From a virus: 32,712 bases of DNA. Shown here one piece after another: positions 8,414 through 31,357 of the stretch. The stretch is from IMG/VR virus record IMGVR_UViG_3300025099_000081, positions 1-32,712 of that record. One strand, given 5' to 3'. A program made the position numbers and the translations under genes. A model generated the notes under the pieces. The model saw only the letters and a list, made by a program, of their open reading frames with translations, ran no database searches and had not been told where the DNA came from. Within the stretch, counting starts at the first letter, position 1. Each line of letters opens with the position of its first letter.

Positions 8414-11400
8414 ATGACAGTATCAACTACAATTATAAAAAACTCTCACAATGGAAATGGTAGTACAACTACCTTTGCTTACAGTTTCAAAATTTTTGCG
8501 GACAGCGACTTAGTAGTAATTATTAGATCATCTACAGGAACAGAGACAACTAAAACATTAACTACTCACTATACAGTTACAGGTGCAGGATCTGCTTCTG
8601 GTGGAACTGTTGTTTTCACGAGTGGTAATATACCCGCTTCGGGTGAGACAGTTGTTATAAGAAGGAATGTCCCGCAAACTCAAGTGATAGATTATATCGC
8701 TAATGATCCATTCCCTGCGGAGACACACGAAGAGGGTCTGGATCGTAACACTATGATTGCTCAACAAGTATCGGAAGCAACAGACAGATCTATCAAACTA
8801 TCAAGAACAAATACTATGACATCTACAGAGTTTACTGTAGGTGCAACTGATAGAGCAAATAAAGTTTTATCTTTTGATTCATCTGGAGAACTTTCAGTAA
8901 CTCAAGAGCTAGGAACTTTCAGAGGTAACTGGTCAGCATCAACTGCTTATCAAGTTAGAGATTTAGTAAAAGACACAAGTACAAATAATATTTTTTTAGC
9001 AAACACAGCACATACATCTTCTGGTTCACAACCGCTTACAACAAATACAGATTCAGCTAAATGGGATTTAATTGTTGACGCTGCAAGTGCAACAACTTCT
9101 GCTAGTGCAGCAGCTACTTCAGCAACAGCTAGTGCAAATAGTGCTACAGCTTCTGCTAACTCTGCAACAGCTAGTGCTAACTCAGCTTCAGCAGCTTCTA
9201 CTTCAGAAACAAATGCTGGAAATTCTGCTACAGCTGCAGCTTCTTCAGCAACTTCTGCAGCAGCTAGTTTTGATTCTTTTGATGACAGATACTTAGGTGC
9301 TAAATCTTCTGATCCATCTACAGACAATGATGGTAATGCTTTATTAACTGGAGCTTTATATTTTAATTCTACAGATGATGTAATGAAAAATTACACAGGT
9401 TCTGCATGGCAAAATTTAAAACCAACTTCATCTGAACAAACAAATATTAATACTTTATCTGCAAGTGCAGTAGTTGCTGACATGGCAATACTAGGTACTA
9501 CAGATGTAGTTAATGATATGAATATTCTAGCAACTGCTGATGTGGTTGCAGATATGAATACACTTGCAACAAGTGATGTAGTAACTGATATGAATACTCT
9601 TGGTACTGCGGATGTTGTTAATGACATGAATGTTTTAGGAACTTCTGCAAATGTAGCAGCTATGAATTTATTAGGTACTTCAGCAGTTGTAGCTGATATG
9701 GCAATTTTAGGAACATCAGATGTTGTGTCAGATATGAACACACTAGCTACAGCAGATGTAGTTAATGATATGAATGTACTTGGTACTTCAGCTAATGTTA
9801 CTGCAATGAATACTTTAGGTACTTCTACTAATGTAACTAACATGGCAACTGTTGCTGCAAATATAACTGGTGTAAATAGTTTTGCAGAAAGATATAGAGT
9901 TACATCTTCAAATCCTACATCAAGTTTAGATGCTGGTGATTTAGCTTTTGTAACTGGAGATAGTGCGTTAAAATTTTATGATGGATCAAGTTGGACTTCT
10001 ATTGCACCGGGAATAGCAAATGTTGTTGACGATAGTTCTCCTCAACTTGGTGGAAACTTAGATTTAAATTCAAATAGTATAACTGGTACTGGTAATTTAG
10101 ATATAGCAAATGGCACAATCAAACTAGATGGTAACTATCCAACAGGTACAGAAAATGTTGCGTTAGGAGACAAGGCATTAGATGATGGTTCGTTAAGTGG
10201 AGCTCATAATACTGCAATTGGCTCTTGTTCTATGACAGCTAATACAAGTGGTCAAAGAAACACTGCTGTTGGTAGAACTTCGTTAGAGGCAAATACGACA
10301 GGTTCTTGTCATACTGCATTTGGTTTTGGAACTTTAAGAAGTAATGTAAATGGAAATTACAATACAGCAATCGGATACCAAAGTTTAAATGCTAATATTA
10401 GTTCAGATAACAATACAGGAGTTGGTTATAATACTTTAGTTGTTAATACAGCTGCAAATAATACAGCAGTTGGTTCGAACTCTTTAGTAGCTAATACAAC
10501 AGGTGGAGAAAATACAGCTGTTGGTGGTTCTGCTTTACAAAAAAATACAACTGCAAGTAATAATGCAGCAGTAGGTTATTTATCATTGTATAACACCACA
10601 ACAGGTGGTGCTAACACATCATTAGGAACTTGTTCTTTAAAAGAAAATACTACAGGAGTTCACAATGTGGCTGTTGGTAAAGATGCTTTAGAAGCTAATA
10701 CAACAGGTGGATGTAATACAGCAGTTGGTAAAGAGGCTTTAGCTGCTAATACAACTGCAAGTGATGGAGTAGCAGTTGGTTATTTAAGTTTAAATAGTAA
10801 TACAACAGGTATTAGAAATACAGCAGTTGGAAGATGTTCTATGCAAGCCAACACATCTGGTTGTTGTAATGTTGCTGTAGGTTCAAGAGCAATGCTTGTC
10901 AATGTTAGTGGAGATTTCAATACTGCTTTAGGTGGAAGTGCTTTAGAATCTAATACAACAGCAGATAACAATACAGCAGTTGGTGCTCATTCTTTAAAAG
11001 TAAACACAACAGGTGCATCAAATACAGCAGTAGGTAAATGTGCTTTAGCTGCTAATACAACAGGTAACAATAACACAGCACTTGGATTTGAATCGCTTAT
11101 AGCTAACACCACAGGCGAAAGTAATGTAGCTCTTGGTAGAACAAGTTTATTTTCAAACACAACAGGTTCAGATAATATTGCAATTGGATTAAGTGCTTTA
11201 AGATGTAACACAACAGCTTCACAAAACACAGCAGTAGGTTTTTGTGCTTTATGTTCTAATACGACAGGTTGTTGTAACACAGCATTAGGTAGGTCATCAC
11301 TTATTGCAAATACAACAGGAAATTTTAATACTGCTGTAGGTAGAGGTGCTATGCAAGTAAATACAACAGCATCAGAAAACACAGCTGTTGGTTTTTTATC

Positions 11401-12592
11401 ACTTTTTAATAATACGACAGGTACAGCTAATACTGCATTAGGTGTAGAATCTCTAAAAGCAAACACAACAGCAAACAGTAATACAGCAGTTGGACTTAAA
11501 TCACTTTACGCTAATACAACAGGAACAGATAATACAGCTATCGGACAACAGAGTTTATTTTCTAACACAACAGGTGATAGAAATGTAGCATCAGGTTATA
11601 CTGCTCTATATACAAATACAACAGGTAATTGCAATATAGCAGTTGGAAGACAAGCATTATATAATAACACCACAGCTTCTAATAATACAGCAGTAGGTAA
11701 TAATGCTTTATTTACTAACACAACAGGTTGTCAAAATACTGCTTTGGGTGAGAGTGCATTAGCTGTTAACACAACAGGTTGTTCAAACGTAGCAATTGGT
11801 CATCTATCTTTAGATGCTAACACAACAGGTTGTTTTAATACAGCAGTTGGAAAAGAATCTTTAACAAGTAATACAACAGGTGTTCATAATATTGCAATTG
11901 GTAGAGCAACTTTAGACCAAAATACAACAGGTCATTATAATTTAGCAGTTGGTTATCAAGCTATGGCTGTTAATACAGCTTCTTGTTATCATACTGCACT
12001 TGGTTATTTTGCTTTATTTCTTACCAATGGTGGTGAAAGTAATACTGCTGTAGGAAGAAACTCAGGGTACAATATTTCAACAGGCTCTAATAACTTAACA
12101 TTAGGATTTAATGCAGGTAGGTCTAGTTCCCCATCAGGTGCAATTACAACAAGTTCTAATAATGTTGTTCTTGGAAATGATAGTATCACAGATTTATATT
12201 GTGCTGATACATCAATTTCATCATCAGATTTAAGAGATAAGACTGATATAGAAGATTTTACACATGGTTTAGATTTTGTAACAAAATTAAATCCTAAAAC
12301 TTATAGATGGGATAAACGAAGTTGGTATATAACTGATGACAACCAAAGTATATTAGATGTAACACCAGATGGTTCTAAAAAGAAAAATAAAAAACATATT
12401 GGTTTCTTAGCACAAGACGTATTGGCTTTAGAAAAAGAAATAGGTTTTGCTAATGATAGAGATGATATGTTAGTTGTTAATCAAACTGAAGATGAAACTA
12501 GATATGGTCTAAAATATGAAAGATTAGTACCTGTATTAGTCAATGCAATTAAAGAATTAAAAGCAGAAATAGACGAATTAAAGAAAAAATAA
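8414..12592 (+). CDS. Giant tail fibre: T7-like anchor, repeat shaft, S74 chaperone
   Basis: 1392-residue receptor-binding fibre. Residues 1-150 match the T7-type tail-fibre N-terminal domain that docks to the tail (FAYSFKIFADSDLVV, then EEGLDRNTMIAQQ). Residues 222-290 are an Ala/Ser/Thr-rich, coiled-coil-like stalk. Residues 345-488 hold about 11-12 copies of a 12-residue repeat (consensus MNTLGTSDVVND). Residues 599-1226 hold about 37 tandem 17-residue units (consensus NTAVGxxSLxANTTGxx), a trimeric beta-roll pattern like YadA/Hia heads, with about 20 Cys. Residues 1271-1392 are a peptidase S74 intramolecular chaperone with the Ser-Lys pair SDLRDK (S1271, K1276), then GFLAQDV and a terminal YERLVPVLVNAIKELKAEI helix; it is expected to cleave itself off after trimerisation. 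An AGGAAAG ribosome site precedes the ATG. Confidence 0.92.
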   Translation: MTVSTTIIKNSHNGNGSTTTFAYSFKIFADSDLVVIIRSSTGTETTKTLTTHYTVTGAGSASGGTVVFTSGNIPASGETVVIRRNVPQTQVIDYIANDPFPAETHEEGLDRNTMIAQQVSEATDRSIKLSRTNTMTSTEFTVGATDRANKVLSFDSSGELSVTQELGTFRGNWSASTAYQVRDLVKDTSTNNIFLANTAHTSSGSQPLTTNTDSAKWDLIVDAASATTSASAAATSATASANSATASANSATASANSASAASTSETNAGNSATAAASSATSAAASFDSFDDRYLGAKSSDPSTDNDGNALLTGALYFNSTDDVMKNYTGSAWQNLKPTSSEQTNINTLSASAVVADMAILGTTDVVNDMNILATADVVADMNTLATSDVVTDMNTLGTADVVNDMNVLGTSANVAAMNLLGTSAVVADMAILGTSDVVSDMNTLATADVVNDMNVLGTSANVTAMNTLGTSTNVTNMATVAANITGVNSFAERYRVTSSNPTSSLDAGDLAFVTGDSALKFYDGSSWTSIAPGIANVVDDSSPQLGGNLDLNSNSITGTGNLDIANGTIKLDGNYPTGTENVALGDKALDDGSLSGAHNTAIGSCSMTANTSGQRNTAVGRTSLEANTTGSCHTAFGFGTLRSNVNGNYNTAIGYQSLNANISSDNNTGVGYNTLVVNTAANNTAVGSNSLVANTTGGENTAVGGSALQKNTTASNNAAVGYLSLYNTTTGGANTSLGTCSLKENTTGVHNVAVGKDALEANTTGGCNTAVGKEALAANTTASDGVAVGYLSLNSNTTGIRNTAVGRCSMQANTSGCCNVAVGSRAMLVNVSGDFNTALGGSALESNTTADNNTAVGAHSLKVNTTGASNTAVGKCALAANTTGNNNTALGFESLIANTTGESNVALGRTSLFSNTTGSDNIAIGLSALRCNTTASQNTAVGFCALCSNTTGCCNTALGRSSLIANTTGNFNTAVGRGAMQVNTTASENTAVGFLSLFNNTTGTANTALGVESLKANTTANSNTAVGLKSLYANTTGTDNTAIGQQSLFSNTTGDRNVASGYTALYTNTTGNCNIAVGRQALYNNTTASNNTAVGNNALFTNTTGCQNTALGESALAVNTTGCSNVAIGHLSLDANTTGCFNTAVGKESLTSNTTGVHNIAIGRATLDQNTTGHYNLAVGYQAMAVNTASCYHTALGYFALFLTNGGESNTAVGRNSGYNISTGSNNLTLGFNAGRSSSPSGAITTSSNNVVLGNDSITDLYCADTSISSSDLRDKTDIEDFTHGLDFVTKLNPKTYRWDKRSWYITDDNQSILDVTPDGSKKKNKKHIGFLAQDVLALEKEIGFANDRDDMLVVNQTEDETRYGLKYERLVPVLVNAIKELKAEIDELKKK
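9446..9877 (+). repeat. 12-residue (36-bp) tandem repeats in fibre shaft
   Basis: About 12 in-frame units spaced 36 bases apart; ATG of the 'MAIL/MNTL' units occurs every 36 bases from 9482 to 9842. Consensus is M-N-x-L-G/A-T-S-D-V-V-x-D. The nucleotide sequence is diverged between units while the protein pattern is kept, which points to selection on the fibre rather than recent duplication. Confidence 0.85.
10208..12091 (+). repeat. About 37 tandem 17-residue (51-bp) beta-roll repeats in fibre
   Basis: Units of consensus NTAVGxxSLxANTTGxx run from 10208 to 12091. I count 37, one of them 16 residues long, plus degenerate flanking units. Variable positions 6-7 and 16-17 hold the diversity, including repeated Cys. 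Synonymous divergence between units is high, so the array is old and maintained. Confidence 0.88.
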
Positions 12593-12616: not shown

Positions 12617-13498
12617 ATGTTAAATACATATGTCGTAGAAGGCGGAGTAGGTAAATGTACTGCATTTACAGCTTTAATACCAGAACTTAAAAAAAAATCA
12701 GAGGTGCAAATATATACACCTTACATTGGTTGCTTTGGTGGTAATCCAAATGTTAAGATGGCATTTGAAGGAACTATACCTTTAACACATCCAGACATAA
12801 TGGCATCAGATAATCTATATTATTGTGAGCCATATAAATCTAATTTTCAATTTGGTAAACAACATTTAATAGAAAGTTACTGTGAGCATCATGGTGTTAA
12901 ATATGATAAATCAATGAAACCCAAAATATACACAGAGCAATACAAAGAAAAAGTTGATGAATGGTTAAAGGTAAATAAGATAGGTAAATATATTTTAATT
13001 CAACTTTCTGGTGGACAACCTCAAATGGGTTTTAATGTTAATAACCAATATGTTAATATTAATCCTAATAGAAACTATCCACCTTTTCTTGCACAACAAG
13101 TTGTTGATATGCTAAGAAAAGAATATCCAAACACAACTATTATTAACTGCGTATTACCTAATGAACCACATTTTAATGGTACTATAAGATGTGATCTACA
13201 TTGGACACATATACATGAAATGTTAAAAGGTGCAGAGGGGTTTATTAGTATTGATAGTTGCTTAAATCACTTTTCAGCATCAGCAGAAAAACATGGAGTA
13301 GTTGTTTGGGGTTCAACAAGGTGGACACAATTTGGTTATTCACACAACAAAAACCTACAATTTCACATGAATGATAAATGGGATGAAATAAAGTATGTTG
13401 AAAGTGATCCTAGAAATGTTATGGTAGAACCTAAATTAATTATTGATAGTTTTAAAAAACTTGATAAAGACAAACCAGTTGCGTGTGCAACTAAATAG
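12617..13498 (+). CDS. Glycosyltransferase family 9-like protein
   Basis: 293-residue protein with the layout of a GT-B, GT9-like (heptosyltransferase-type) enzyme. Residues 208-241 carry GFISIDSCLNHFSASAEKHG followed by VVVWGSTRWTQFGY, the equivalent of the nucleotide-sugar binding 'DSG.mHlA.a...P.v.l.Gpt....fGp' signature. The N-terminal EGGVGKCTAFTALIPEL matches the 'GG.GD...tp.l..L' start of such enzymes. The canonical 'G' after DS is replaced by C, so the donor site may be altered. It follows the tail fibre (24-base gap) with a GAAAGGAAC ribosome site. Likely roles are modification of virion or host-surface glycan; acceptor and donor cannot be read from sequence. Confidence 0.68.
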   Translation: MLNTYVVEGGVGKCTAFTALIPELKKKSEVQIYTPYIGCFGGNPNVKMAFEGTIPLTHPDIMASDNLYYCEPYKSNFQFGKQHLIESYCEHHGVKYDKSMKPKIYTEQYKEKVDEWLKVNKIGKYILIQLSGGQPQMGFNVNNQYVNINPNRNYPPFLAQQVVDMLRKEYPNTTIINCVLPNEPHFNGTIRCDLHWTHIHEMLKGAEGFISIDSCLNHFSASAEKHGVVVWGSTRWTQFGYSHNKNLQFHMNDKWDEIKYVESDPRNVMVEPKLIIDSFKKLDKDKPVACATK

Positions 13499-13768: not shown

Positions 13769-13984
13769 ATGAAATTTGTTTTAGCCTACACTATTTGTTC
13801 GGCTATTACAGGTTTTTGTAATACACCAATAGCACATCCTACAGATTTTAATACTTGGACCGATTGCACAAAACATGGTGCAGTAATAACTATAAAAACT
13901 ACCAATGATTTTTTAGAAAGATTTAACGAAGAAAAATTATACGTTTCTTATTTTTGTAATTCAGTGGAGAGAGATAATGCCTAA
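13769..13984 (+). CDS. Small Cys-containing protein with signal-like N-terminus, unknown function
   Basis: 71 residues. The N-terminus MKFVLAYTICSAITGFC is hydrophobic and could be a weak signal peptide or membrane anchor. Cys residues recur in the remainder, compatible with an exported, disulfide-bonded protein. No clear Shine-Dalgarno precedes the ATG (only AT-rich sequence). It overlaps the next gene by 8 bases. No family recognised. Confidence 0.5.
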   Translation: MKFVLAYTICSAITGFCNTPIAHPTDFNTWTDCTKHGAVITIKTTNDFLERFNEEKLYVSYFCNSVERDNA

Positions 13985-14171
13985 GAACTCTGCGCTTGAA
14001 AGAATAGAATCACACGAAAAACTTTGTAGAATAATGCAAAAACAAACTCATCAAAAAATTCATAATATCGAAACAGAAATCAAAGATATAAAAAAACATT
14101 TATACTATGCTATGTCTGCGCTCATAGGTGGTATGTTCACAATTATAGTTATATTATTTCAAAAACTTTAA
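13977..14171 (+). CDS. Small tail-anchored coiled-coil membrane protein
   Basis: 64 residues: a charged helix (ERIESHEKLCRIMQKQTHQKIHNIE...) followed by a C-terminal membrane segment (YAMSALIGGMFTIIVILFQ, about 43-62). This resembles small XhlA-type or accessory lysis membrane proteins in architecture only. GGAGAGAG lies just upstream of the ATG. Close to the holin-like gene, so a role in lysis or membrane association is possible but unproven. Confidence 0.6.
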   Translation: MPKNSALERIESHEKLCRIMQKQTHQKIHNIETEIKDIKKHLYYAMSALIGGMFTIIVILFQKL

Positions 14172-14185
14172 ACTTTAAGGCTGCT

Positions 14186-14491
14186 ATGGCTAGAAGAAAA
14201 AAGGCAATCACTGGTTTAGTTAGCGAAATGAAAGTACAAATAGAACTTGCAGAAGATCCAAACTTATTAGTATTTACACCGCTTGGTGGTCTAGGTCCGG
14301 TAGATATTGTTACTTTAAATATGTCTACAGGTGAGTATATTGGGTATGATGTTAAGTCAAAAAACTATAGAAAGAAAGATAGTTATGTTGCACCAGATGG
14401 ATACAAAAGAAATCTTAAAGGAACTTTTATATCAAGAGGTGCTACTAAAGAACAAAAGAAACTAAAGATAAAGATAATATATGCCAAATGA
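14186..14491 (+). CDS. Mini PD-(D/E)XK nuclease-like protein
   Basis: 101 residues. Glu14 in an N-terminal helix (LVSEMKVQIELAE), GPVDIVTL with Asp40, and GEYIGYDVKSKNY with Asp55-x-Lys57 are spaced like the PD-(D/E)XK catalytic core of Holliday-junction-resolvase or VSR-like nucleases. The length covers little more than this core. An AAGG ribosome site precedes the ATG, and the 3' end overlaps the next gene by 11 bases. Candidate roles are branched-DNA resolution before packaging or host DNA degradation. The motif is visible; activity is inference. Confidence 0.6.
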   Translation: MARRKKAITGLVSEMKVQIELAEDPNLLVFTPLGGLGPVDIVTLNMSTGEYIGYDVKSKNYRKKDSYVAPDGYKRNLKGTFISRGATKEQKKLKIKIIYAK

Positions 14492-14693
14492 TAATTCGCT
14501 AGATATTATTAATGAGTATAAAGAGCAGGTAAGAATACTGAAAGGACAGATTGCAGAGCTTGAAGATGCAAATAAGTCTAAAGATTCAGCTAATAAAAGG
14601 TGTTTGCAAAAGCTAGAATTTTGTACTAAAGATTTAGATGATGCTCAAAAAAAAATCAAAGAATTAGAGGAGAAAATAGATAATGCCATTTGA
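14481..14693 (+). CDS. Small coiled-coil protein
   Basis: 70 residues, almost entirely heptad-like charged helix (YKEQVRILKGQIAELEDANK..., then DDAQKKIKELEEKI) with two Cys in the middle. No membrane segment. It overlaps both neighbours by 11 bases (mini-PD-(D/E)XK gene and holin-like gene), so it is part of a translationally coupled set. Function unknown; a scaffold or partner protein is plausible. Confidence 0.6.
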   Translation: MPNDNSLDIINEYKEQVRILKGQIAELEDANKSKDSANKRCLQKLEFCTKDLDDAQKKIKELEEKIDNAI

Positions 14694-15114
14694 AATGATA
14701 ACAATGCTAGGCTCTACTGTATTAGGTGGAGTGATGAGTATTTGGTCCCAAAGTATTAAAGCAAAAAGAGAAGAACAAAAGATGTTAATACAAAGAGCAG
14801 AAGTACAAACTGCTGCTTTTAAAGAAGCAAGAGAGTATGAGAACACAGGCTTTCAATGGACCAGAAGAATAATTGCACTTACTGCTATCTTTGCTATAGT
14901 TGTATTACCAAAAATTTTACCACTTATCTCTCCAGATGCTCACGTTGTAGTTGGCTACACACAATTTAAACCCGGATTTTTATTCTTTGAAGGTAAAGAA
15001 ATTATGAAGTGGGTACCTATGGATGCTAAAGGAATAATCATTACACCACTAGATACTAACTTAGTATCTGCAATTATTGGTTTATACTTTGGTGGGTCCT
15101 TAGTTAAAAAATGA
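14683..15114 (+). CDS. Holin-like three-TM protein (GTA holin type)
   Basis: 143 residues with a short hydrophobic N-terminal segment (about 7-22), a charged helix, a strong membrane segment at 63-83 (IIALTAIFAIVVLPKILPLI) and another at the C-terminus (about 122-140) ending in LVKK. This matches the organisation of the 3-TM holin family known from gene transfer agents and common in marine phages. GGAG lies upstream of the ATG; the stop overlaps the cupin gene as ATGA. Proposed role: timed permeabilisation of the inner membrane. No endolysin gene sits next to it, which is unusual. Confidence 0.6.
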   Translation: MPFEMITMLGSTVLGGVMSIWSQSIKAKREEQKMLIQRAEVQTAAFKEAREYENTGFQWTRRIIALTAIFAIVVLPKILPLISPDAHVVVGYTQFKPGFLFFEGKEIMKWVPMDAKGIIITPLDTNLVSAIIGLYFGGSLVKK

Positions 15115-15608
15115 TTGATCCCAATCAAGACAAACTATCTCATTTTGCGCACTGGTATCTAACCTCTGGTGAAGTAGATAAAGTATATACACCTATGAAA
15201 AATGGTTTAGTATTCATAGAAGGTGTTAGTGGTATAGTTTTATATAGAGTAAAATCTTTTCAAGTAGAACTATTTATATGTCAGCCTAACTGTGTAATAC
15301 CACAACACACACATCCAGATGTAGATAGTTATGAATGTTTTTTATATGGAATGAAATTCACTCACTCTGGTGAAACTATAATTGATCACGAAGAAGCATT
15401 TAAAGAAGAGAATGGTTTTCCAATTAATCTTTATCAAACTATAAGAGTAAGACCAAATGATCCTCATGGCGGAACAGCATCTGATAAGGGAGGTGCTTTT
15501 ATATCTATTCAACACTGGTTAAATGATGTAGAACCTACTCATGTAAGTTCTAATTGGGATGGAAATTATATGGGTAAAGAACATTTAAAACAAGCAAACA
15601 CAAAATGA
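15111..15608 (+). CDS. Cupin-fold protein
   Basis: 165 residues. CVIPQHTHPDVDSYECFLYG (61-80) supplies His66, His68 and Glu75, and VRPNDPHGG supplies His119. Together these are the HxH...E...H metal site of a cupin beta-barrel. It could be a metal-dependent dioxygenase, isomerase or sugar-binding cupin; the substrate is not evident. It is translationally coupled to the holin-like gene (ATGA overlap) and to a tiny ORF at its 3' end. Cupins recur in marine phages near tail or lysis genes; a role in glycan or host-metabolite modification is only a guess. Confidence 0.65.
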   Translation: MIDPNQDKLSHFAHWYLTSGEVDKVYTPMKNGLVFIEGVSGIVLYRVKSFQVELFICQPNCVIPQHTHPDVDSYECFLYGMKFTHSGETIIDHEEAFKEENGFPINLYQTIRVRPNDPHGGTASDKGGAFISIQHWLNDVEPTHVSSNWDGNYMGKEHLKQANTK

Positions 15609-15733
15609 AGTTGTATGCACAACAATATAGTAAGAGAGTAACACACTTATCACAACAAGGTTATGGCAAAAAAAAAGTTAAATCTCGAAAAACTAGAACA
15701 CGTCAGAATACCAAAAAAAACAAGTATAGGTAG
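15605..15733 (+). CDS. Tiny basic ORF, possible
   Basis: 42 codons, starting on the ATGA overlap with the cupin stop. The product (MKLYAQQYSKRVTHLSQQGY...) is highly basic at its C-terminus. It shares most of its length with the better-supported ORF beginning at 15663 in another frame, so one of the two may be spurious. Kept because of the coupled start. Confidence 0.35.
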   Translation: MKLYAQQYSKRVTHLSQQGYGKKKVKSRKTRTRQNTKKNKYR

Positions 15734-15812
15734 ACGACCTAAACTATCTTCTATGAATAAACATAGAAAGAGACAAAAAGGTAAATCAAAAAATCGTGGA
15801 CAAGGGAAGTAA
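15663..15812 (+). CDS. Tiny basic conserved protein
   Basis: 49 residues, about a third Lys/Arg. The pattern KTSIGRRPKLSSMNKHRKRQKGKSKNRGQGK resembles a short basic protein (KTSIG...NKHKR...RGQGR) that recurs in marine phages; function unknown. AAGG lies 4-7 bases upstream of the ATG. Too basic and short for an enzyme; nucleic-acid binding is plausible. Confidence 0.6.
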   Translation: MAKKKLNLEKLEHVRIPKKTSIGRRPKLSSMNKHRKRQKGKSKNRGQGK

Positions 15813-15844
15813 TATCTTATAATAAAAAGTCGGAGGATATAAAT

Positions 15845-15985
15845 ATGCATGATGATATACCTACACACGAACAGGACTTAAATATGATACAAAAGATTAA
15901 GAACAAAGCTATGCACTATTGGACAGACCATAAAGAAATGGTTATCGCAATAGCTGTAGTATTGGTTATTGCTATCATTATATAA
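15845..15985 (+). CDS. Tiny C-terminal-anchored membrane protein
   Basis: 46 residues. An N-terminal acidic/polar part (MHDDIPTHEQDLNMIQKIKN) is followed by a single membrane helix at the C-terminus (EMVIAIAVVLVIAIII). The ribosome site GGAGG at 15832-15836 is the best in this region (8-base spacing), arguing for real expression. Similar small 'PTHEQDLNM' membrane proteins occur in marine phages. Unknown function; membrane location suggests lysis or envelope remodelling. Confidence 0.65.
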   Translation: MHDDIPTHEQDLNMIQKIKNKAMHYWTDHKEMVIAIAVVLVIAIII

Positions 15986-16004
15986 TCAAACATAAGGATA
16001 ACCT

Positions 16005-16094
16005 ATGGAGATAGACAGGATGAACTACTATTTCACAGGTTTTCTTATAATAATGCTTACGTTGTTGGCTTTTTGTGGAGGACCAGCAACATGA
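16005..16094 (+). CDS. 29-residue membrane peptide
   Basis: ATG preceded by AAGGA at 6-base spacing. The product is MEIDRMNYYFTGF followed by a hydrophobic run LIIMLTLLAFCGGPAT, i.e. one membrane segment or lipoprotein-like signal (LAFC is a poor lipobox because of the Phe). It overlaps the next small gene's ATG by 4 bases. Could be a small holin or disruptin-type peptide; unproven. Confidence 0.45.
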   Translation: MEIDRMNYYFTGFLIIMLTLLAFCGGPAT

Positions 16095-16198
16095 TTGATA
16101 AATTTATCTATAATTTTTTTGGAAAATTAGATATACTTTGTGGTTTGATAGACAAACTATTTGCGCCACGTTGTAAATGTAAGAAGAAAAAGAAATGA
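16091..16198 (+). CDS. 35-residue amphipathic Cys/Lys-tailed peptide
   Basis: Starts on an ATGA overlap with the previous tiny gene and ends on an ATGA overlap with the next. The sequence MIDKFIYNFFGKLDILCGLIDKLF is an amphipathic helix, then APRCKCKKKKK: a CxC motif and a five-Lys tail. The same style of C-terminus is seen in other marine-phage peptides. Peripheral membrane or nucleic-acid association is possible. Confidence 0.5.
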   Translation: MIDKFIYNFFGKLDILCGLIDKLFAPRCKCKKKKK

Positions 16199-16560
16199 AA
16201 GTATCTGAAAATACATCTGTAAGTATGCCAATCAAAAATATGGTTGGTATCATTGTAGCGGTTGCTATGGGTATCTTTGCATACACTGAAGTTACTGCTA
16301 GACTTACATCACTTGAAACATCAAGAGAATTATTTCAAGCTGACTTACTTAAAAAGTCAGAACAAAAACCAACTGATCAAGAACAGTTTATGTTATTGGA
16401 ATCAGTTTTTGCTGACGTAGAAAAACTTACAGAAAATCAAGAGCAGAACATGACTAACAAAGTTAATATAGAATTTTTAAAAAACCAATTAGAAAAAGCA
16501 TTAAAAGATATTGAACATTTAAAAGATAAAGTAAGACAAAATGGTAATGGTCATGATTGA
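16195..16560 (+). CDS. N-terminally anchored coiled-coil protein (spanin-like layout)
   Basis: 121 residues. A short N-terminal tail, one membrane helix at about 15-31 (NMVGIIVAVAMGIFAYTEV), then a long charged coiled-coil (SLETSRELFQADLLKK, later VNIEFLKNQLEKALKDIEHLKDKV). An N-in inner-membrane helix with a periplasmic coiled coil is the architecture of i-spanins, but sequence similarity to a spanin family was not recognised. It overlaps the following gene, which begins with a membrane segment, so the pair could be a spanin equivalent. Coupled to the upstream peptide by ATGA. Confidence 0.6.
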   Translation: MKVSENTSVSMPIKNMVGIIVAVAMGIFAYTEVTARLTSLETSRELFQADLLKKSEQKPTDQEQFMLLESVFADVEKLTENQEQNMTNKVNIEFLKNQLEKALKDIEHLKDKVRQNGNGHD

Positions 16561-16768
16561 AATAGTGGTAGCATTATTATTAGTAATTAATTCAGAGATA
16601 AAAGAAGCTCGTATACAACCCGATCTTAGCACTTGCCTTAAAGGTAAAAGATTAGCAAATCGTACAAACACTGGTAGTAATATTGTTTACCAATGTGTGC
16701 GTAGCAAGGCAGAGCTTGAAAAAAATATTGATGGGTCCTTATCAATCAAGAAACTTATATTGGAGTAA
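16553..16768 (+). CDS. Small protein with N-terminal membrane/signal segment, two Cys
   Basis: 71 residues from the ATG at 16553; ATGs at 16541 and 16547 are in frame but give a non-natural MVMVM start. N-terminal MIEIVVALLLVINSEIKEARI is a signal anchor; the rest holds STCLKGKRLANR and VYQCVRSKAELEK, probably one disulfide, and ends KKLILE. The pattern is conserved in small marine-phage proteins of unknown role. It overlaps the coiled-coil membrane gene by 8 bases and may be its partner. Confidence 0.6.
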   Translation: MIEIVVALLLVINSEIKEARIQPDLSTCLKGKRLANRTNTGSNIVYQCVRSKAELEKNIDGSLSIKKLILE

Positions 16769-16770
16769 TT

Positions 16771-17037
16771 ATGGCAAAGACACCAGCATGGCAACGTAAA
16801 GAAGGCAAGAATCCTAAAGGAGGATTAAATGCTAAAGGTAGAGCTTCTTATAACAAAGGTCGTACAAAGACCGGCAAGAAGAGAAACTTAAAAGCACCAA
16901 GTAAAAAAGTAGGCAACAAACGTAGAGCTAGTTTCTGTGCGAGGATGAAAGGCATGAAGAAGAAATTGACTTCAGCTAAAACTGCAAGAGATCCTAACAG
17001 TAGAATTAACAAAGCACTTCGTGCTTGGAACTGTTAA
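16771..17037 (+). CDS. Highly basic DUF6321-like protein
   Basis: 88 residues, about 35% Lys/Arg. MAKTPAWQRKEGKNPKGGLNAKGRASYN is the start of a small phage family (resembling DUF6321) found in many aquatic phages, and RRASFCARMKGMKK in the middle fits the same family. It follows the previous stop by 2 bases and its TAA overlaps the next ATG. Function unknown; the charge suggests DNA or RNA binding, or a virion-packaged condensing protein. Confidence 0.75.
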   Translation: MAKTPAWQRKEGKNPKGGLNAKGRASYNKGRTKTGKKRNLKAPSKKVGNKRRASFCARMKGMKKKLTSAKTARDPNSRINKALRAWNC

Positions 17038-17240
17038 TGAAACGTAAGACTTGGGTTAAAAGAGAAACAGTTAGGCTTTGTGGTTATTGTGAAGAATGTA
17101 ATAAAGAACTATTGAGTAATGAAGGCGGATGGATTATAACTCATACCAAGAAGTATTTTTGCCATGATGGTAAAGATGGTTCTTGTTTTGATAACTATTG
17201 TAAACGTAAATTAAAGGAGAAACAATATGCCGGGATATAA
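17037..17240 (+). CDS. Zinc-ribbon/treble-clef-like small protein
   Basis: 67 residues from the ATG at 17037, which overlaps the upstream TAA; an upstream in-frame ATG at 17025 lies within the previous gene and is less likely. LCGYCEECNKELL and YFCHDGKDGSCFDNYCKRK supply a CxxCxxC cluster and a second Cys/His cluster, typical of a small zinc-binding fold. Role unknown; such phage proteins often bind nucleic acid or host proteins. Confidence 0.6.
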   Translation: MKRKTWVKRETVRLCGYCEECNKELLSNEGGWIITHTKKYFCHDGKDGSCFDNYCKRKLKEKQYAGI

Positions 17241-17316
17241 AATGAAGAAACCAATGACAAAAAAGAAAGTTAAGAAAGCAAAGAAAGCTAAAAAATCTAA
17301 AGGGAGAATGTACTAA
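17227..17316 (+). CDS. 29-residue Lys-rich peptide
   Basis: The sequence begins MPGYKMKKPMTKKK and ends SKGRMY; about half the residues are Lys. GGAG lies upstream at normal spacing, and its TAA overlaps the next ATG. 'MPGYK.KK' peptides of this kind recur in marine phages. Unknown function. Confidence 0.5.
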   Translation: MPGYKMKKPMTKKKVKKAKKAKKSKGRMY

Positions 17317-17411
17317 TGTTAAAAGGTAAACAGAAAAATCTTCCACCTGCATTAAAGAAAAAAATTATTGCAGCAAAAATGAAGAAGAATAAAAATAAAA
17401 AGAAAAAATAA
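17316..17411 (+). CDS. 31-residue Lys-rich peptide
   Basis: Starts on the TAATG junction after the previous peptide; sequence MLKGKQKNLPPALKKKIIAA, then a Lys/Asn tail. The LPPALKKKI core is common in short aquatic-phage peptides. Its own TAA overlaps the next ATG. Function unknown. Confidence 0.5.
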   Translation: MLKGKQKNLPPALKKKIIAAKMKKNKNKKKK

Positions 17412-17554
17412 TGGCAACTAAATCTGTAAAAGCACCTAAAGGTTTTCATTGGATGAAAAAAGGTTCAACCTTTAAACTGATGAAAGGTACTTATAAACCA
17501 CATAAAGGAGCTGTAAAGATGGCAAAGTTTACAGTACAAAAGAAACATGGCTAA
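17411..17554 (+). CDS. Small basic conserved phage protein (PKGFHWMKKG type)
   Basis: 47 residues: KAPKGFHWMKKGSTFKLMKG, then YKPHKGAVKMAKFTVQKKHG. This motif set is characteristic of a short protein common in marine phage and virome contigs; no function is known. Linked by TAATG to the gene before, and its 3' end overlaps the gene after by 8 bases. Confidence 0.65.
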   Translation: MATKSVKAPKGFHWMKKGSTFKLMKGTYKPHKGAVKMAKFTVQKKHG

Positions 17555-17687
17555 ACTATGTGCTAAAGGTAAGGCTGCTGCCAAACGTAAGTTTAAAGTG
17601 TATCCATCTGCGTATGCAAACATGTATGCAGCCGGTGTATGTAGTGGTAGAATAAAACCTAAAGCTACAAAGAAAAAAAGAAAGTAA
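17547..17687 (+). CDS. Small basic conserved phage protein (LCAKGKAAAKRKF type)
   Basis: 46 residues: MAKLCAKGKAAAKRKFKVYP, SAYANMYAAGVCSGRIKPK. This is a well-conserved short protein of marine phages, with two Cys and many Lys. TAATG coupling to the next gene. Function unknown; probable nucleic-acid-associated protein from its composition. Confidence 0.7.
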   Translation: MAKLCAKGKAAAKRKFKVYPSAYANMYAAGVCSGRIKPKATKKKRK

Positions 17688-17932
17688 TGTCAAAAGGTTT
17701 ACGATCTTGGGTACAAGCTAACTGGGTAGATATTGCTAACCCTAAAAAGGGTGGTGGCTTTCCGAAGTGTGGTCGTAGTGGTGGGGAAAAAAGAAAGAAC
17801 TATCCCAAGTGTGTTCCTGCTGCTAAAGCTAGGTCCATGTCTGCAAGTCAGAGAGCTGCTGCAGTATCAAGAAAAAAGAAAGCTGAAAGAAAAACTAGAC
17901 AAGGTAAGAAACCTAACTACGCAAAAACATAA
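17687..17932 (+). CDS. Basic conserved phage protein (KKWV..NWVDI..CGRS type)
   Basis: 81 residues: GLRSWVQANWVDIANP, FPKCGRSGGEKRKNYPKC, then a very basic helix rich in Ala, Arg and Lys (ASQRAAAVSRKKKAERK). Two Cys in the KCGRS/PKCVP pair may bind zinc. The pattern is widespread in aquatic phages with no assigned function. It is the last gene of the rightward late block and converges with the DnaA-like gene after only 3 bases. Confidence 0.7.
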   Translation: MSKGLRSWVQANWVDIANPKKGGGFPKCGRSGGEKRKNYPKCVPAAKARSMSASQRAAAVSRKKKAERKTRQGKKPNYAKT

Positions 17933-17935
17933 CTA

Positions 17936-18469
17936 TTATTCTTTAATAGTTTCTGCTACAGTTTCTTTTATCTTTTCGTACTCTTGCCACAAAGTTTTTT
18001 CCGGTGACCAAAATCTTCTTTGATCTCGTTTCATCTCTATTGAATGTAAAACTGTGGTATGATCTTGTCCAAAGTATCTACCAATATCTGTTAAACCCAT
18101 ATTATATTTTTCAAATAATAAATTATGAATAACATTTCTAGCTCTAACTATGCTTGATGTTCTTGACTTACCCATCAATGTTTCTTTGTGAACCTCAAAG
18201 TAAATACAAATTTTATTTATAACTGATTGTACATCAGATGGTTTCGGTGTTTTAAAACTAAAACCTACAATCTTTTTATTTGGTGGCGCAACTTGAACCG
18301 GTCTTTTTCTATCCTGCATTTCTTTGCAGCCATTGATAAAACCAAGTCTATAAATTTTTTTTTTATCTTCGCTTAACAAATCGTATGATGATTTAACTTC
18401 ATAAATAAATTCATTTTGATTTAGATATTTAATATGATTTTCGTATACATTGTTTATATTTTTGGTCAT
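17936..18469 (-). CDS. DnaA domain IV-like DNA-binding protein
   Basis: 177 residues. The C-terminal part (about 80-148) matches the DNA-binding domain IV of DnaA: INKICIYFEVHKETLMGKSR, SIVRARNVIHNLLF and the signature YFGQDHTTVLHSI (equivalent of 'GRDHTTVLHA'). There is no AAA+ ATPase domain; the N-terminal 75 residues are charged and unrecognised. It probably binds DnaA-box-like sequences, as an origin-binding adaptor, as a competitor of host DnaA or as a regulator of transcription. GGGGA precedes the ATG. It is the last gene of the leftward replication/recombination operon. Confidence 0.88.
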   Translation of the reverse strand: MTKNINNVYENHIKYLNQNEFIYEVKSSYDLLSEDKKKIYRLGFINGCKEMQDRKRPVQVAPPNKKIVGFSFKTPKPSDVQSVINKICIYFEVHKETLMGKSRTSSIVRARNVIHNLLFEKYNMGLTDIGRYFGQDHTTVLHSIEMKRDQRRFWSPEKTLWQEYEKIKETVAETIKE

Positions 18470-25238: not shown

Positions 25239-26510
25239 ATGGATATTAAAATACCCTACACACCAAGGAAACACCAAGCTCATTTACATAGACAAATAGA
25301 TAAGCACAGATGGAATGTACTCGTATGCCATCGTAGGTTTGGTAAAACAGTATGCATGATCAACCACCTAATTAGGTCAGCATTACTGTCCCAAAATAAA
25401 AACCCTAGGTATGCCTATATTGCACCCACCTTTAAACAAGCAAAGTCTATTGCATGGGATTACATGAAACAGTTCACCGCCAAGATACCCCACACCAAGT
25501 TTAACGAGACAGAGCTGCGTGTAGACCTACCTAATGGCTCTCGTATTACCTTGCTAGGCAGTGAATCGCCAGATGGTCTTCGTGGAATATATTTAGATGG
25601 ATGTGTGATTGACGAATATGCGAACGTCAATAGTAAGCTATTTCCAGAAATTATTAGACCTGCATTATCAGATCGTAAAGGTTACTGTGTGTTTATTGGT
25701 ACACCTATGGGAATGAACAATAACTTCTATGAATTATACCAACACGCACAAGGTGCGGATGATTGGTTTCACTATAAAGCTAAAGCTAGTCAAACAAAGA
25801 TAGTTGATCAAGATGAATTAGATAAGGCAAAAGAAGTTATGGGAGATAAGAAGTATCAGCAAGAGTTTGAGTGTGATTGGATTGCCAACATAGAAGGCGC
25901 AGTGTATGGAGATGTAATTGCAAAACTAGATGATGACAGACAGCTTACCAGAGTGCCTTACGATCCTGCGCTACCAGTATCAACAGCATGGGACCTTGGA
26001 GTATCAGATCACAGTTCTATAATATTTTATCAGCAGCTTGGCAGATCCATAAACATTATTGATTACCACGAAGAGAAAGGTCAAGGTCTACCTTATTACA
26101 TTAAGATGATTAATGAAAAAGAATATATCTACAAAGATCATTTTGCTCCGCATGACATTGAAGTTACAGAATTTGGAAATGGCAAAACTCGAAGAGAGGT
26201 CGCTACGCAATTAGGATTAAGGTTTAAAGTCGTACCAAAAATTCCATTAGAAGATGGTATCCATGCAACAACAATGATGTTACCTAGATGTTGGATTGAT
26301 GTTGAGCATTGCAAAAGTTTGATAGATGCGTTAAGACATTACCACAGGAAGTATATTGATAAAAACAGAATGTTTAGATCAAAGCCTGTCCACGATTGGA
26401 GCAGCCATGCGTGTGATGCCATGAGGTATCTCGCTGTTGGTCTTCAAGAAATTAATACTAGACAAACTGCTCCACAAGTTGTAGCAGATAATAATTATAG
26501 GATTTTATAA
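25239..26510 (+). CDS. terL: Terminase large subunit
   Basis: 423 residues. ATPase: Walker A-type CHRRFGKT (30-37), the adenine/Q-type start PYTPRKHQ, Walker B VIDE with Asp125-Glu126, and the coupling motif IGTP (153-156). Nuclease: Asp252 in TAWDLGVSD, KDHFAPHD (299-306) and HDWSSHACDAMRY (385-397, with Asp386 and Asp393), the RNase H-fold metal ligands. It pumps DNA into proheads and cuts concatemers. It lacks its own Shine-Dalgarno and probably depends on coupling to the upstream 62-residue gene. Start of the packaging/capsid operon. Confidence 0.95.
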   Translation: MDIKIPYTPRKHQAHLHRQIDKHRWNVLVCHRRFGKTVCMINHLIRSALLSQNKNPRYAYIAPTFKQAKSIAWDYMKQFTAKIPHTKFNETELRVDLPNGSRITLLGSESPDGLRGIYLDGCVIDEYANVNSKLFPEIIRPALSDRKGYCVFIGTPMGMNNNFYELYQHAQGADDWFHYKAKASQTKIVDQDELDKAKEVMGDKKYQQEFECDWIANIEGAVYGDVIAKLDDDRQLTRVPYDPALPVSTAWDLGVSDHSSIIFYQQLGRSINIIDYHEEKGQGLPYYIKMINEKEYIYKDHFAPHDIEVTEFGNGKTRREVATQLGLRFKVVPKIPLEDGIHATTMMLPRCWIDVEHCKSLIDALRHYHRKYIDKNRMFRSKPVHDWSSHACDAMRYLAVGLQEINTRQTAPQVVADNNYRIL

Positions 26511-30493: not shown

Positions 30494-31357
30494 ATGTCAT
30501 CACAAATAACTACAGCATTTGTACAGCAATATTCTGCTAACATTCAAATGCTTTCTCAACAAATGGGATCGTTATTAAGAGACAAAGTACGTCTTGAATC
30601 TGTTGTCGGAAAAAATGCTTTCTTCGATCAAGTAGGAAGTGTAACTGCTATTGAAAAAACTAGCAGACATTCTGACACTCCTCAAATCGATACTCCACAT
30701 GCAAGAAGAAGAGTATCTCTTGCGGATTACGAATTTGCGGATTTAATAGACCAACAGGACAAAGTACGTCTTTTAATAGACCCGACTTCATCTTATGCTC
30801 AAGCTGCAGCTATGGCTATGGGTAGAGCTATGGATGATGTGGTAATCAGTGCCGCTTTAGGAACTGCATTTACTGGCGAAACAGGATCAACTTCAACTGT
30901 ATTACCTTCTGCACAGAAGATTACAGAAAGTGGTACTGATGGTTTAACTATTGCAAAGTTAAGAACTGCAAAAGAAAAGTTCGACTTAGCAAGTGTAGAC
31001 CCATCAATCGCTAGATTTATTGTGGTATCACCTAGACAAATCACTGATTTATTAGGTACTACTGAAGTAACAAGTTCAGATTTCAACACTGTTAAAGCAT
31101 TAGCAAATGGTGAAATCAACTCGTTCCTTGGTTTTAACTTTATTGTATCAAACAGACTATCTATTGCATCTTCTAAAAGATCATGTATCGCATTTGCACA
31201 GGATGGTATTACATTAGCAGTTGGTAAAGATGTTTCAGCTAGAATAGACGAAAGAGCTGATAAATCTTATGCTACTCAAGTGTACTACTGCATGAGCATT
31301 GGCGCTACTAGAATGGAAGAAGAAAAAGTAGTAGAAGTCCAAGCTCACGAAGCATAA
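30494..31357 (+). CDS. Major capsid protein
   Basis: 287 residues, in the expected slot after scaffold. SSQITTAFVQQYSANIQMLSQQ, SLLRDKVRLES, FFDQVG, DTPHARRRVSLADYEFADLID, DPTSSYAQAAAMAMGRAMDD and ARFIVVSPRQITDLLG are typical of a small HK97-fold capsid family found in marine podoviruses. Forms the icosahedral shell. Codon use shifts slightly towards a highly expressed pattern (more C-ending codons than in neighbouring genes by eye). GGGAGACT precedes the ATG. Confidence 0.9.
   Translation: MSSQITTAFVQQYSANIQMLSQQMGSLLRDKVRLESVVGKNAFFDQVGSVTAIEKTSRHSDTPQIDTPHARRRVSLADYEFADLIDQQDKVRLLIDPTSSYAQAAAMAMGRAMDDVVISAALGTAFTGETGSTSTVLPSAQKITESGTDGLTIAKLRTAKEKFDLASVDPSIARFIVVSPRQITDLLGTTEVTSSDFNTVKALANGEINSFLGFNFIVSNRLSIASSKRSCIAFAQDGITLAVGKDVSARIDERADKSYATQVYYCMSIGATRMEEEKVVEVQAHEA

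What the first reader, a model, noticed from the sequence alone, without database searches (positions are those of the whole stretch)
15605..17932. Dense cassette of about 12 tiny membrane and Lys-rich proteins
Between the cupin and the convergent end of the late operon, nearly every base is coding for 29-121-residue proteins linked by ATGA/TAATG overlaps: four or five membrane/coiled-coil peptides, then seven very basic peptides, several with paired Cys. Several resemble conserved but uncharacterised marine-phage peptides. Such conservation without known function suggests a shared system: candidates are DNA condensation in the virion, ribosome/RNAP takeover or a non-canonical lysis set.
Basis: partly seen in the sequence, partly recalled or inferred. 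Interest (0 to 1): 0.75.

Follow-up and report, generated by a model that had tools for sequence, protein, structure and literature searches.

The report
Marine phage basic virion-module gene cassette
A run of tiny genes in a virus of the ocean's most abundant bacteria encodes small positively charged proteins that, in hundreds of cyanobacterial viruses, are joined into one larger protein found in purified virus particles, so they are probably packaged with the viral DNA rather than being miscellaneous unknowns.

Summary
The cassette is real: 14 ATG ORFs cover 98% of 15605-17932 (dinucleotide shuffles average 15%), and the ORFs tested show dN/dS 0.08-0.42. It lies in an HTVC010P-type pelagiphage (nearest isolate HTVC203P). 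It is not one block of twelve. The membrane pair F05/F06 separates from the basic genes in many relatives, while the basic genes form a conserved module set: F12 (YPSAYAN) just before F13 (WVDI..CGR..YPKC), plus either DUF6321 (F07) or an alternative RARH..WSC protein. All 208 distinct F13 proteins examined have an F12-type partner; only one locus has both F07 and its alternative. In T4-like cyanophages the same three modules are fused in one protein between the terminase genes (58 of 77 fusions: F13-F12type-DUF6321). Two such phages have published virion mass spectrometry: S-SCSM1 gp029 (all three modules) is labelled virion protein, and S-CREM2 gp160 and gp137 (modules split) were detected. 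Distant relatives lie in giant-virus Pfam families (DUF5872; weakly DUF5754/Tlr6F). Best reading: virion-internal, DNA-associated basic proteins, working like T4 internal proteins. Virion location is supported by homology; DNA binding is inferred. A lysis role for the basic genes is unsupported.

The parts
15605..15733 (+). F00: 42 aa very basic ORF overlapping F01 out of frame; probably a gene
   Evidence: conserved in HTVC203P (L001:3115-3243) and non-overlapping in HTVC010P (L002:2844-2948)
15663..15812 (+). F01: 49 aa basic peptide, pI 12
   Evidence: dN/dS 0.35
15845..15985 (+). F02: 46 aa, C-terminal hydrophobic segment
   Evidence: only close relatives found
16005..16094 (+). F03: 29 aa hydrophobic peptide
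16091..16198 (+). F04: 35 aa amphipathic, Lys-rich tail
16195..16560 (+). F05: 121 aa, one N-terminal TM then coiled coil (phrog_20984)
   Evidence: E 1.4e-63; adjacent to F06 in 46 of 48 loci
16553..16768 (+). F06: 71 aa, N-terminal hydrophobic stretch and two Cys (phrog_24646)
   Evidence: E 2.4e-31
16771..17037 (+). F07: 88 aa DUF6321 module, net +27, two conserved Cys
   Evidence: Pfam E 8.9e-19, 68.3 bits against cutoff 28.5; 512 phage records; model pLDDT 83
17037..17240 (+). F08: 67 aa, six Cys, zinc-finger-like spacing
   Evidence: Cys columns 68-100% conserved in 19 distinct sequences
17227..17316 (+). F09: 29 aa, 48% Lys/Arg
   Evidence: HTVC203P has one 35 aa ORF in place of F09+F10
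17316..17411 (+). F10: 31 aa, 45% Lys/Arg
17411..17554 (+). F11: 47 aa, PKGFHWMKKG..LMKG.YKPHKGAV..AKF.VQKKH
   Evidence: found in HTVC106P, HTVC103P/104P, roseophage CRP-901 and at least 80 viral contigs; dN/dS 0.13
17547..17687 (+). F12: 46 aa, Cys..YPSAY..Cys module; probable relative of the DUF5872 N-half
   Evidence: both Cys 100% conserved in 110 distinct sequences; upstream of F13 in 66 of 66 testable loci; dN/dS 0.08
17687..17932 (+). F13: 81 aa, WVDI..CGR..YPKCVP module; relative of the DUF5872 C-half
   Evidence: hhalign with P-SCSP2 protein E 3.9e-14, which itself hits PF19197 at 5e-14; model pLDDT 81

Best explanation
The right-hand, basic half of the cassette (F07, F12, F13, probably F11, and possibly F09/F10) encodes a set of small virion proteins. 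They are made late, taken into the head during assembly or packaging, lie against the packaged DNA, where they offset its charge, and may enter the cell with it. They work like the small basic internal proteins of phage T4. In pelagiphages and cyanopodoviruses each module is its own gene; in T4-like cyanophages the same modules are strung together in one late protein. Shown here: module identity, fusion, synteny, purifying selection, and published virion detection of homologues. Inferred: that this phage's own copies are in its virion, that they touch DNA, and that they are ejected. The membrane half (F02-F06) is a separate neighbour set of unknown role.
For: (1) Fusion: Bellamy gp123, S-SM2 SSM2_109, Syn9 gp114 and 58 of 77 multi-module proteins have the order F13 - F12-type - DUF6321. 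(2) Virion mass spectrometry of homologues: S-CREM2 gp160 (F13-type E 5e-14 + F12-type E 2e-24; 7 unique peptides) and gp137 (DUF6321 E 3.5e-10; 4 unique peptides) are in PMC10665884 Table 3. S-SCSM1 gp029 (F13 9e-14, F12-type 9e-29, DUF6321 8e-34) is recorded as 'virion protein', the tag also given to its structural proteins, and PMC9602691 reports 45 virion proteins by mass spectrometry. (3) Position: between terS and terL in cyanomyoviruses, between scaffold and major capsid genes in cyanopodovirus P-SCSP2 (F12, F13, F07 as separate genes), just after the major capsid gene in P-SCSP1q, at the end of the late operon here. (4) Linkage: F12-type upstream of F13 in 66/66 F13-drawn loci; F13 downstream in 37/37 F12-drawn loci; 208/208 distinct F13 have a partner on the same strand. 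(5) Composition: F07/F12/F13 pI 10.6-11.9, net +15 to +27. (6) T4 precedent: IPI-III are basic, about 8-20 kDa, about 360 copies per head, bind DNA at low salt; many are ejected (PMC9026906).
Against: No virion proteomics or DNA-binding data were found for any pelagiphage in this group. Detection in the cyanophages is of whole larger proteins and may come from their other parts (Bellamy gp123 also has DUF192); gp137 rests on 4 peptides (4.1% coverage). Contamination of CsCl preparations is possible, as the S-SCSM1 authors say for some proteins. The modules fold (pLDDT 81 and 83) and carry invariant Cys and Trp, which suggests a specific function beyond charge neutralisation. HTVC010P lacks F11-F13, so they are not essential to the lineage. 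No solved structure matches.
Confidence: 0.55

Rival explanations
1. Ejected host-takeover or counter-defence effectors: the modules ride in the virion but act in the new host cell on ribosome, RNA polymerase, nucleoid or a nuclease, as T4 Alt and IPI do. DNA contact in the head is incidental.
For: Specific folds with invariant Cys/Trp, swappable third module (F07 or FRAR), shuffled order in fusions, virion detection of homologues. T4 precedent in PMC9026906.
Against: No similarity to any known effector or solved structure. Presence in phages of many hosts (Pelagibacter, Synechococcus, Roseobacter, Flavobacterium) argues against a host-specific target.
Confidence: 0.2
2. Assembly or packaging factors: proteins that help head assembly, terminase action or DNA packaging and are carried along in small amounts.
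For: Genes lie between terS and terL or between scaffold and major capsid genes in other phages; low peptide counts in virions.
Against: Here they lie far from the terminase-like gene (25239-26510) and the capsid-like gene (30494-31357); gene position varies between lineages while the modules stay together.
Confidence: 0.15
3. A non-canonical lysis set: the membrane peptides F02-F06 with the basic peptides form a lysis apparatus.
For: Late operon, next to the usual M15 endolysin slot of relatives; F05 is a TM plus coiled-coil protein nearly always next to F06; no M15 endolysin found at its usual place in this phage.
Against: The basic modules occur in phages without F05/F06 and inside cyanophage fusion proteins between terminase genes. 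F06 has no evident lipobox. F05/F06 separate from the basic genes in many loci.
Confidence: 0.05
4. Unlinked orphan genes gathered at a late-operon end by illegitimate recombination, with no common function.
For: F01-F04 and F09/F10 are short, fast-changing or restricted to close relatives.
Against: F12-F13 linkage without exception in testable loci, fusion in other phages, dN/dS about 0.1.
Confidence: 0.05

Closest known systems
T4-GC119 proteins of T4-like cyanophages (phrog_727; Bellamy gp123, S-SM2 SSM2_109, Syn9 gp114, P-HM2 PHM2_112)
   Same: Contain F13-type, F12-type and DUF6321 modules (P-HM2: DUF6321 only recognised); late structural region; two relatives with virion evidence
   Different: One fused protein with acidic linkers and extra domains (DUF192), lying between terS and terL; here separate genes at the end of the late operon
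Phage T4 internal proteins IPI, IPII, IPIII
   Same: Small, basic; virion location supported for homologues; proposed DNA contact (PMC9026906)
   Different: No sequence relation shown; the window proteins have no leader with an L/I-x-E site; ejection and copy number unknown
DUF5872 (PF19197), annotated in the algal giant virus CpV-BQ1 (PMC12085832)
   Same: F13 relatives match the C-half (P-SCSP2 E 5e-14; HTVC027P 5e-4), F12-type relatives match the N-half (CRP-901 E 2e-3)
   Different: The Pfam model is one 116-position unit; in phages it is two genes or two modules. The window proteins themselves do not reach the Pfam cutoff
DUF6321 (PF19846)
   Same: F07 is a clear member
   Different: Stand-alone 88 aa gene here, usually the C-terminal domain of a longer cyanophage protein
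Tlr6F / DUF5754 (PF19058) of polinton-like viruses, virophages and giant viruses (PMC4642659, PMC12220804)
   Same: The alternative third module (FRAR) weakly matches it: 5 of 14 members, best E 0.0015; a small protein shared by phages and eukaryotic viruses
   Different: Absent from this window, where DUF6321 takes the place; match below Pfam cutoff

Membership tests
DUF6321 (PF19846) | score over Pfam gathering cutoff across the whole model | tested here: met
   F07: 68.3 bits against 28.5, model positions 1-72 of 72
DUF5872 (PF19197) | score over Pfam cutoff for the window proteins F12 and F13 | tested here: not met
   no hit at E up to 1 for either
DUF5872 (PF19197) | F13 family homologous to the C-half | tested here: met
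   hhalign F13 seeds against P-SCSP2 protein E 3.9e-14, prob 98; that protein hits PF19197 E 5e-14 over positions 55-112
DUF5872 (PF19197) | F12 family homologous to the N-half | tested here: inconclusive
   hhalign F12 against cyanophage N-type E 7.6e-5, prob 62, 13 columns; 8 ORFs hit by both profiles; similar Cys..PSAY..Cys layout
T4-type internal proteins (functional analogy only) | small and basic | tested here: met
   46-88 aa, pI 10.6-11.9
T4-type internal proteins (functional analogy only) | present in the mature virion | tested here: inconclusive
   not tested for this phage; fused or split homologues in S-CREM2 and S-SCSM1 virions
T4-type internal proteins (functional analogy only) | N-terminal capsid-targeting leader cut at L/I-x-E by the prohead protease | tested here: not met
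   F07, F12 and F13 begin directly at the module, no leader. In fusions a Glu before A/G/S at module junctions is enriched, but strict I/L at P3 is not general
T4-type internal proteins (functional analogy only) | DNA binding and ejection into the host | not testable with these tools
   needs biochemistry and infection assays
Tlr6F / DUF5754 | presence of the FRAR/Tlr6F-like module | tested here: not met
   window has F07 and no FRAR hit
two-component spanin (for F05/F06) | inner-membrane protein with periplasmic coiled coil plus an outer-membrane lipoprotein | tested here: inconclusive
   F05 has one N-terminal TM and a coiled-coil-like rest; F06 shows no evident lipobox by eye

The most novel reading that the evidence does not exclude
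The modules are parts of a widely shared packaged-protein toolkit: mix-and-match basic modules (DUF5872 N and C halves, DUF6321 or a Tlr6F-like alternative) used by tailed phages of many marine bacteria and by unrelated eukaryotic giant and polinton-like viruses to dress or accompany packaged DNA, encoded as separate genes in small genomes and as one protein, possibly cut by the prohead protease at Glu-Ala/Gly junctions, in T4-like ones.
Probability: 0.25. Interest if true: 0.85.

Novelty: new variant of a known kind. Interest (0 to 1): 0.68.

Why it matters
HTVC010P-type phages are among the most abundant viruses in the sea, and several of their most conserved small genes had no function. Linking them to modules of a cyanophage protein seen in virions turns them into testable virion components, gives a role to look for in the DUF6321 genes of over 500 phage records, and gives a first functional lead for giant-virus families DUF5872 and Tlr6F/DUF5754, which occur across viruses with unrelated capsids. 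A library search found no paper naming DUF6321 and one naming DUF5872.

Tried and rejected
F11 as a piece of the cyanophage PKGYHxMxDGxLMKG segment: only one fusion reached E 0.004, the rest did not; not claimed. F07 and FRAR as homologues: only 14 columns align, prob 17; they are alternatives in linkage, homology unproven. Homology among F07, F11, F12 and F13: none. Solved-structure matches by sequence and by fold: none. P-SCSP1u cryo-EM paper: no virion mass spectrometry of the DUF6321 gene in its text. Pelagiphage transcriptome paper (HTVC027P): timing of gp49/gp50 is only in figure and supplement, not readable here. Cyanophage comparison paper names T4-GC119 only as hypothetical; its proteomics table is in a supplement. 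Strict L/I-x-E junction hypothesis: holds for the FRAR junctions (8/8), partly for F12-type (21/53), not for F07 (9/46) or F13 (8/39); kept as a lead only. P values there ignore shared ancestry.
Full report
What the window is. G000 is a 32,712-base IMG/VR virus record. Its gene order and best DNA matches place it with HTVC010P-type pelagiphages; the nearest isolate is Pelagibacter phage HTVC203P (80% of a 5-kb query at 88% identity), then the Skadi phages, HTVC034P, HTVC035P and HTVC010P.

Observation. The dense cassette is real. Fourteen ATG ORFs of 29-121 aa cover 97.7% of 15605-17932, against a mean of 15% in 200 dinucleotide shuffles. Most ORFs recur in the same order in HTVC203P. Purifying selection is clear and strongest for F12 (0.08), F13 (0.12) and F11 (0.13). 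Two very basic ORFs at the left end overlap out of frame; HTVC010P has their counterparts end to end, so both may be genes.

Not one block. F05 and F06 are adjacent in 46 of 48 loci, but the gap to F13 exceeds 1.3 kb in more than half of 45 loci, with an M15 endolysin between in 15. HTVC010P has F05-F08 without F11-F13. F02 and F03 are found in few relatives. The membrane half and the basic half should be treated as separate things.

The basic half is a module set. Profile searches of about 280 loci from viral contigs, with a few annotated phages, show F12 directly upstream of F13 in 66 of 66 F13-drawn loci with enough upstream sequence, F13 downstream in 37 of 37 F12-drawn loci, and 54 of 58 for the wider F12-type family. 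All 208 distinct F13 proteins have a same-strand partner; 177 also have DUF6321 (F07) or an alternative protein, FRAR (RARHxC...YWSCKxW), and only one has both. In HTVC010P-type phages F07 and FRAR occupy the same slot between F06 and F08 (16 and 2 loci). F12, F13 and F07 each carry two nearly invariant Cys. Caveat: loci were drawn by similarity to these families, and HMMs were iterated on them.

Fusion. In T4-like cyanophages the modules are one protein: Bellamy gp123 (618 aa), S-SM2 SSM2_109 (708 aa) and Syn9 gp114 (443 aa). In Bellamy and P-HM2 the gene lies between the terminase genes, in S-SM2 directly before terL and in Syn9 just after terS. Of 77 multi-module proteins, 58 have F13 - F12-type - DUF6321, and others end in FRAR or have the first two swapped. 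In the cyanopodovirus P-SCSP2 the same three modules are separate genes between scaffold and major capsid. F13 homology across these is well supported (hhalign E 2.5e-10 with the cyanomyovirus module, 3.9e-14 with P-SCSP2), F12 to the F12-type only borderline (E 7.6e-5, prob 62), backed by the similar Cys-PSAY-Cys layout and the shared place next to F13.

Virion evidence. The S-CREM2 virion proteome (PMC10665884, Table 3) lists gp160, which holds F13-type and F12-type modules, with 7 unique peptides, and gp137, which ends in DUF6321, with 4. In S-SCSM1, where 45 virion proteins were found by mass spectrometry (PMC9602691), gp029 is annotated virion protein and contains all three modules. That the label there comes from mass spectrometry is my reading: proteins such as the portal and prohead protease carry the same tag while both terminase subunits do not.

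Wider relatives. P-SCSP2's F13 is a clear DUF5872 member (E 5e-14), and an ORF of roseophage CRP-901 without a gene in its record matches the DUF5872 N-half (E 2e-3), so this Pfam family, annotated in the giant algal virus CpV-BQ1 (PMC12085832), appears split in phages. FRAR matches DUF5754/Tlr6F weakly, a family known from polinton-like viruses, virophages, giant viruses and phages (PMC4642659, PMC12220804). In the bacterial and archaeal genome collection F13 turned up in only 25 contigs, mostly MAGs and single cells, probably phage DNA (inference).

Structure. AlphaFold2 models of F13 and F07 are moderately confident (pLDDT 81 and 83, pTM 0.65 and 0.57). Neither has a credible PDB fold match; F13 matches viral models, including DUF6321 and DUF5872 proteins and the S-SCSM1 virion protein, weakly for most.

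Mechanism. Best reading: late-made basic proteins taken into the head and lying with the DNA, as T4's IPI-III do (basic, about 8-20 kDa, several hundred copies, DNA binding at low salt, many ejected; PMC9026906). The analogy is functional; the window proteins lack the T4 leader. In the fusions most junctions have a Glu followed by A, G or S just before the module (A/G/S after Glu in 40 of 46 for F07, 39 of 53 for F12-type, 27 of 39 for F13, null 19%), and all 8 FRAR junction windows hold an [IL]xE, mostly [IL]xE-AEYQG. T4 prohead protease cuts after L/I-x-E, but strict I/L is met in a minority of the F07, F12-type and F13 junctions, so processing is a lead, not a result.

What is shown and what is not. 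Shown: reality of the ORFs, selection, linkage, fusion, and virion detection of fused or split homologues in two cyanophages. Not shown: presence in this phage's virion, DNA binding, ejection, or any role of the membrane half.

Noticed in passing
17936-18469 (-): 177 aa protein convergent with the cassette; its HTVC203P counterpart is annotated DNA replication initiation (DnaA), suggesting a DnaA C-terminal-like domain carried by the phage.
   Followed up: partly
14481-15608: The M15 endolysin usual at this place in HTVC010P-type phages is missing; instead there is a coiled-coil ORF, a 143 aa hydrophobic (TM) protein and a cupin. The HTVC203P orthologue of the TM protein is labelled peptidase M15 in GenBank but the window protein has no Pfam hit, so the label looks wrong and the lysis enzyme is unidentified.
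   Followed up: partly
13977-14171: 64 aa TM protein with weak similarity to XhlA (E 0.004), a possible holin-associated protein just upstream.
   Followed up: no
15111-15608: Cupin-like protein with weak similarity to PCO_ADO dioxygenases (E 3e-4) inserted in the late operon; absent from the nearest isolate at this place.
   Followed up: partly
12617-13498: Glycosyltransferase family 9-like protein (E 0.002) right after the fibre-like gene.
   Followed up: no
8414-12592: 1392 aa fibre-like protein with long arrays of short repeats.
   Followed up: no
L292:2243-2368 and L005:6275-6640: Small protein with an EF-hand-like loop (DANKDGKISREDF) next to F12/F13 in cyanopodovirus P-SCSP2 and pelagiphage HTVC023P.
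   Followed up: no
L008:3624-4141: Roseophage CRP-901 has unannotated ORFs for the F12-type, F13-type and F11 modules; the record leaves this stretch without genes.
   Followed up: yes
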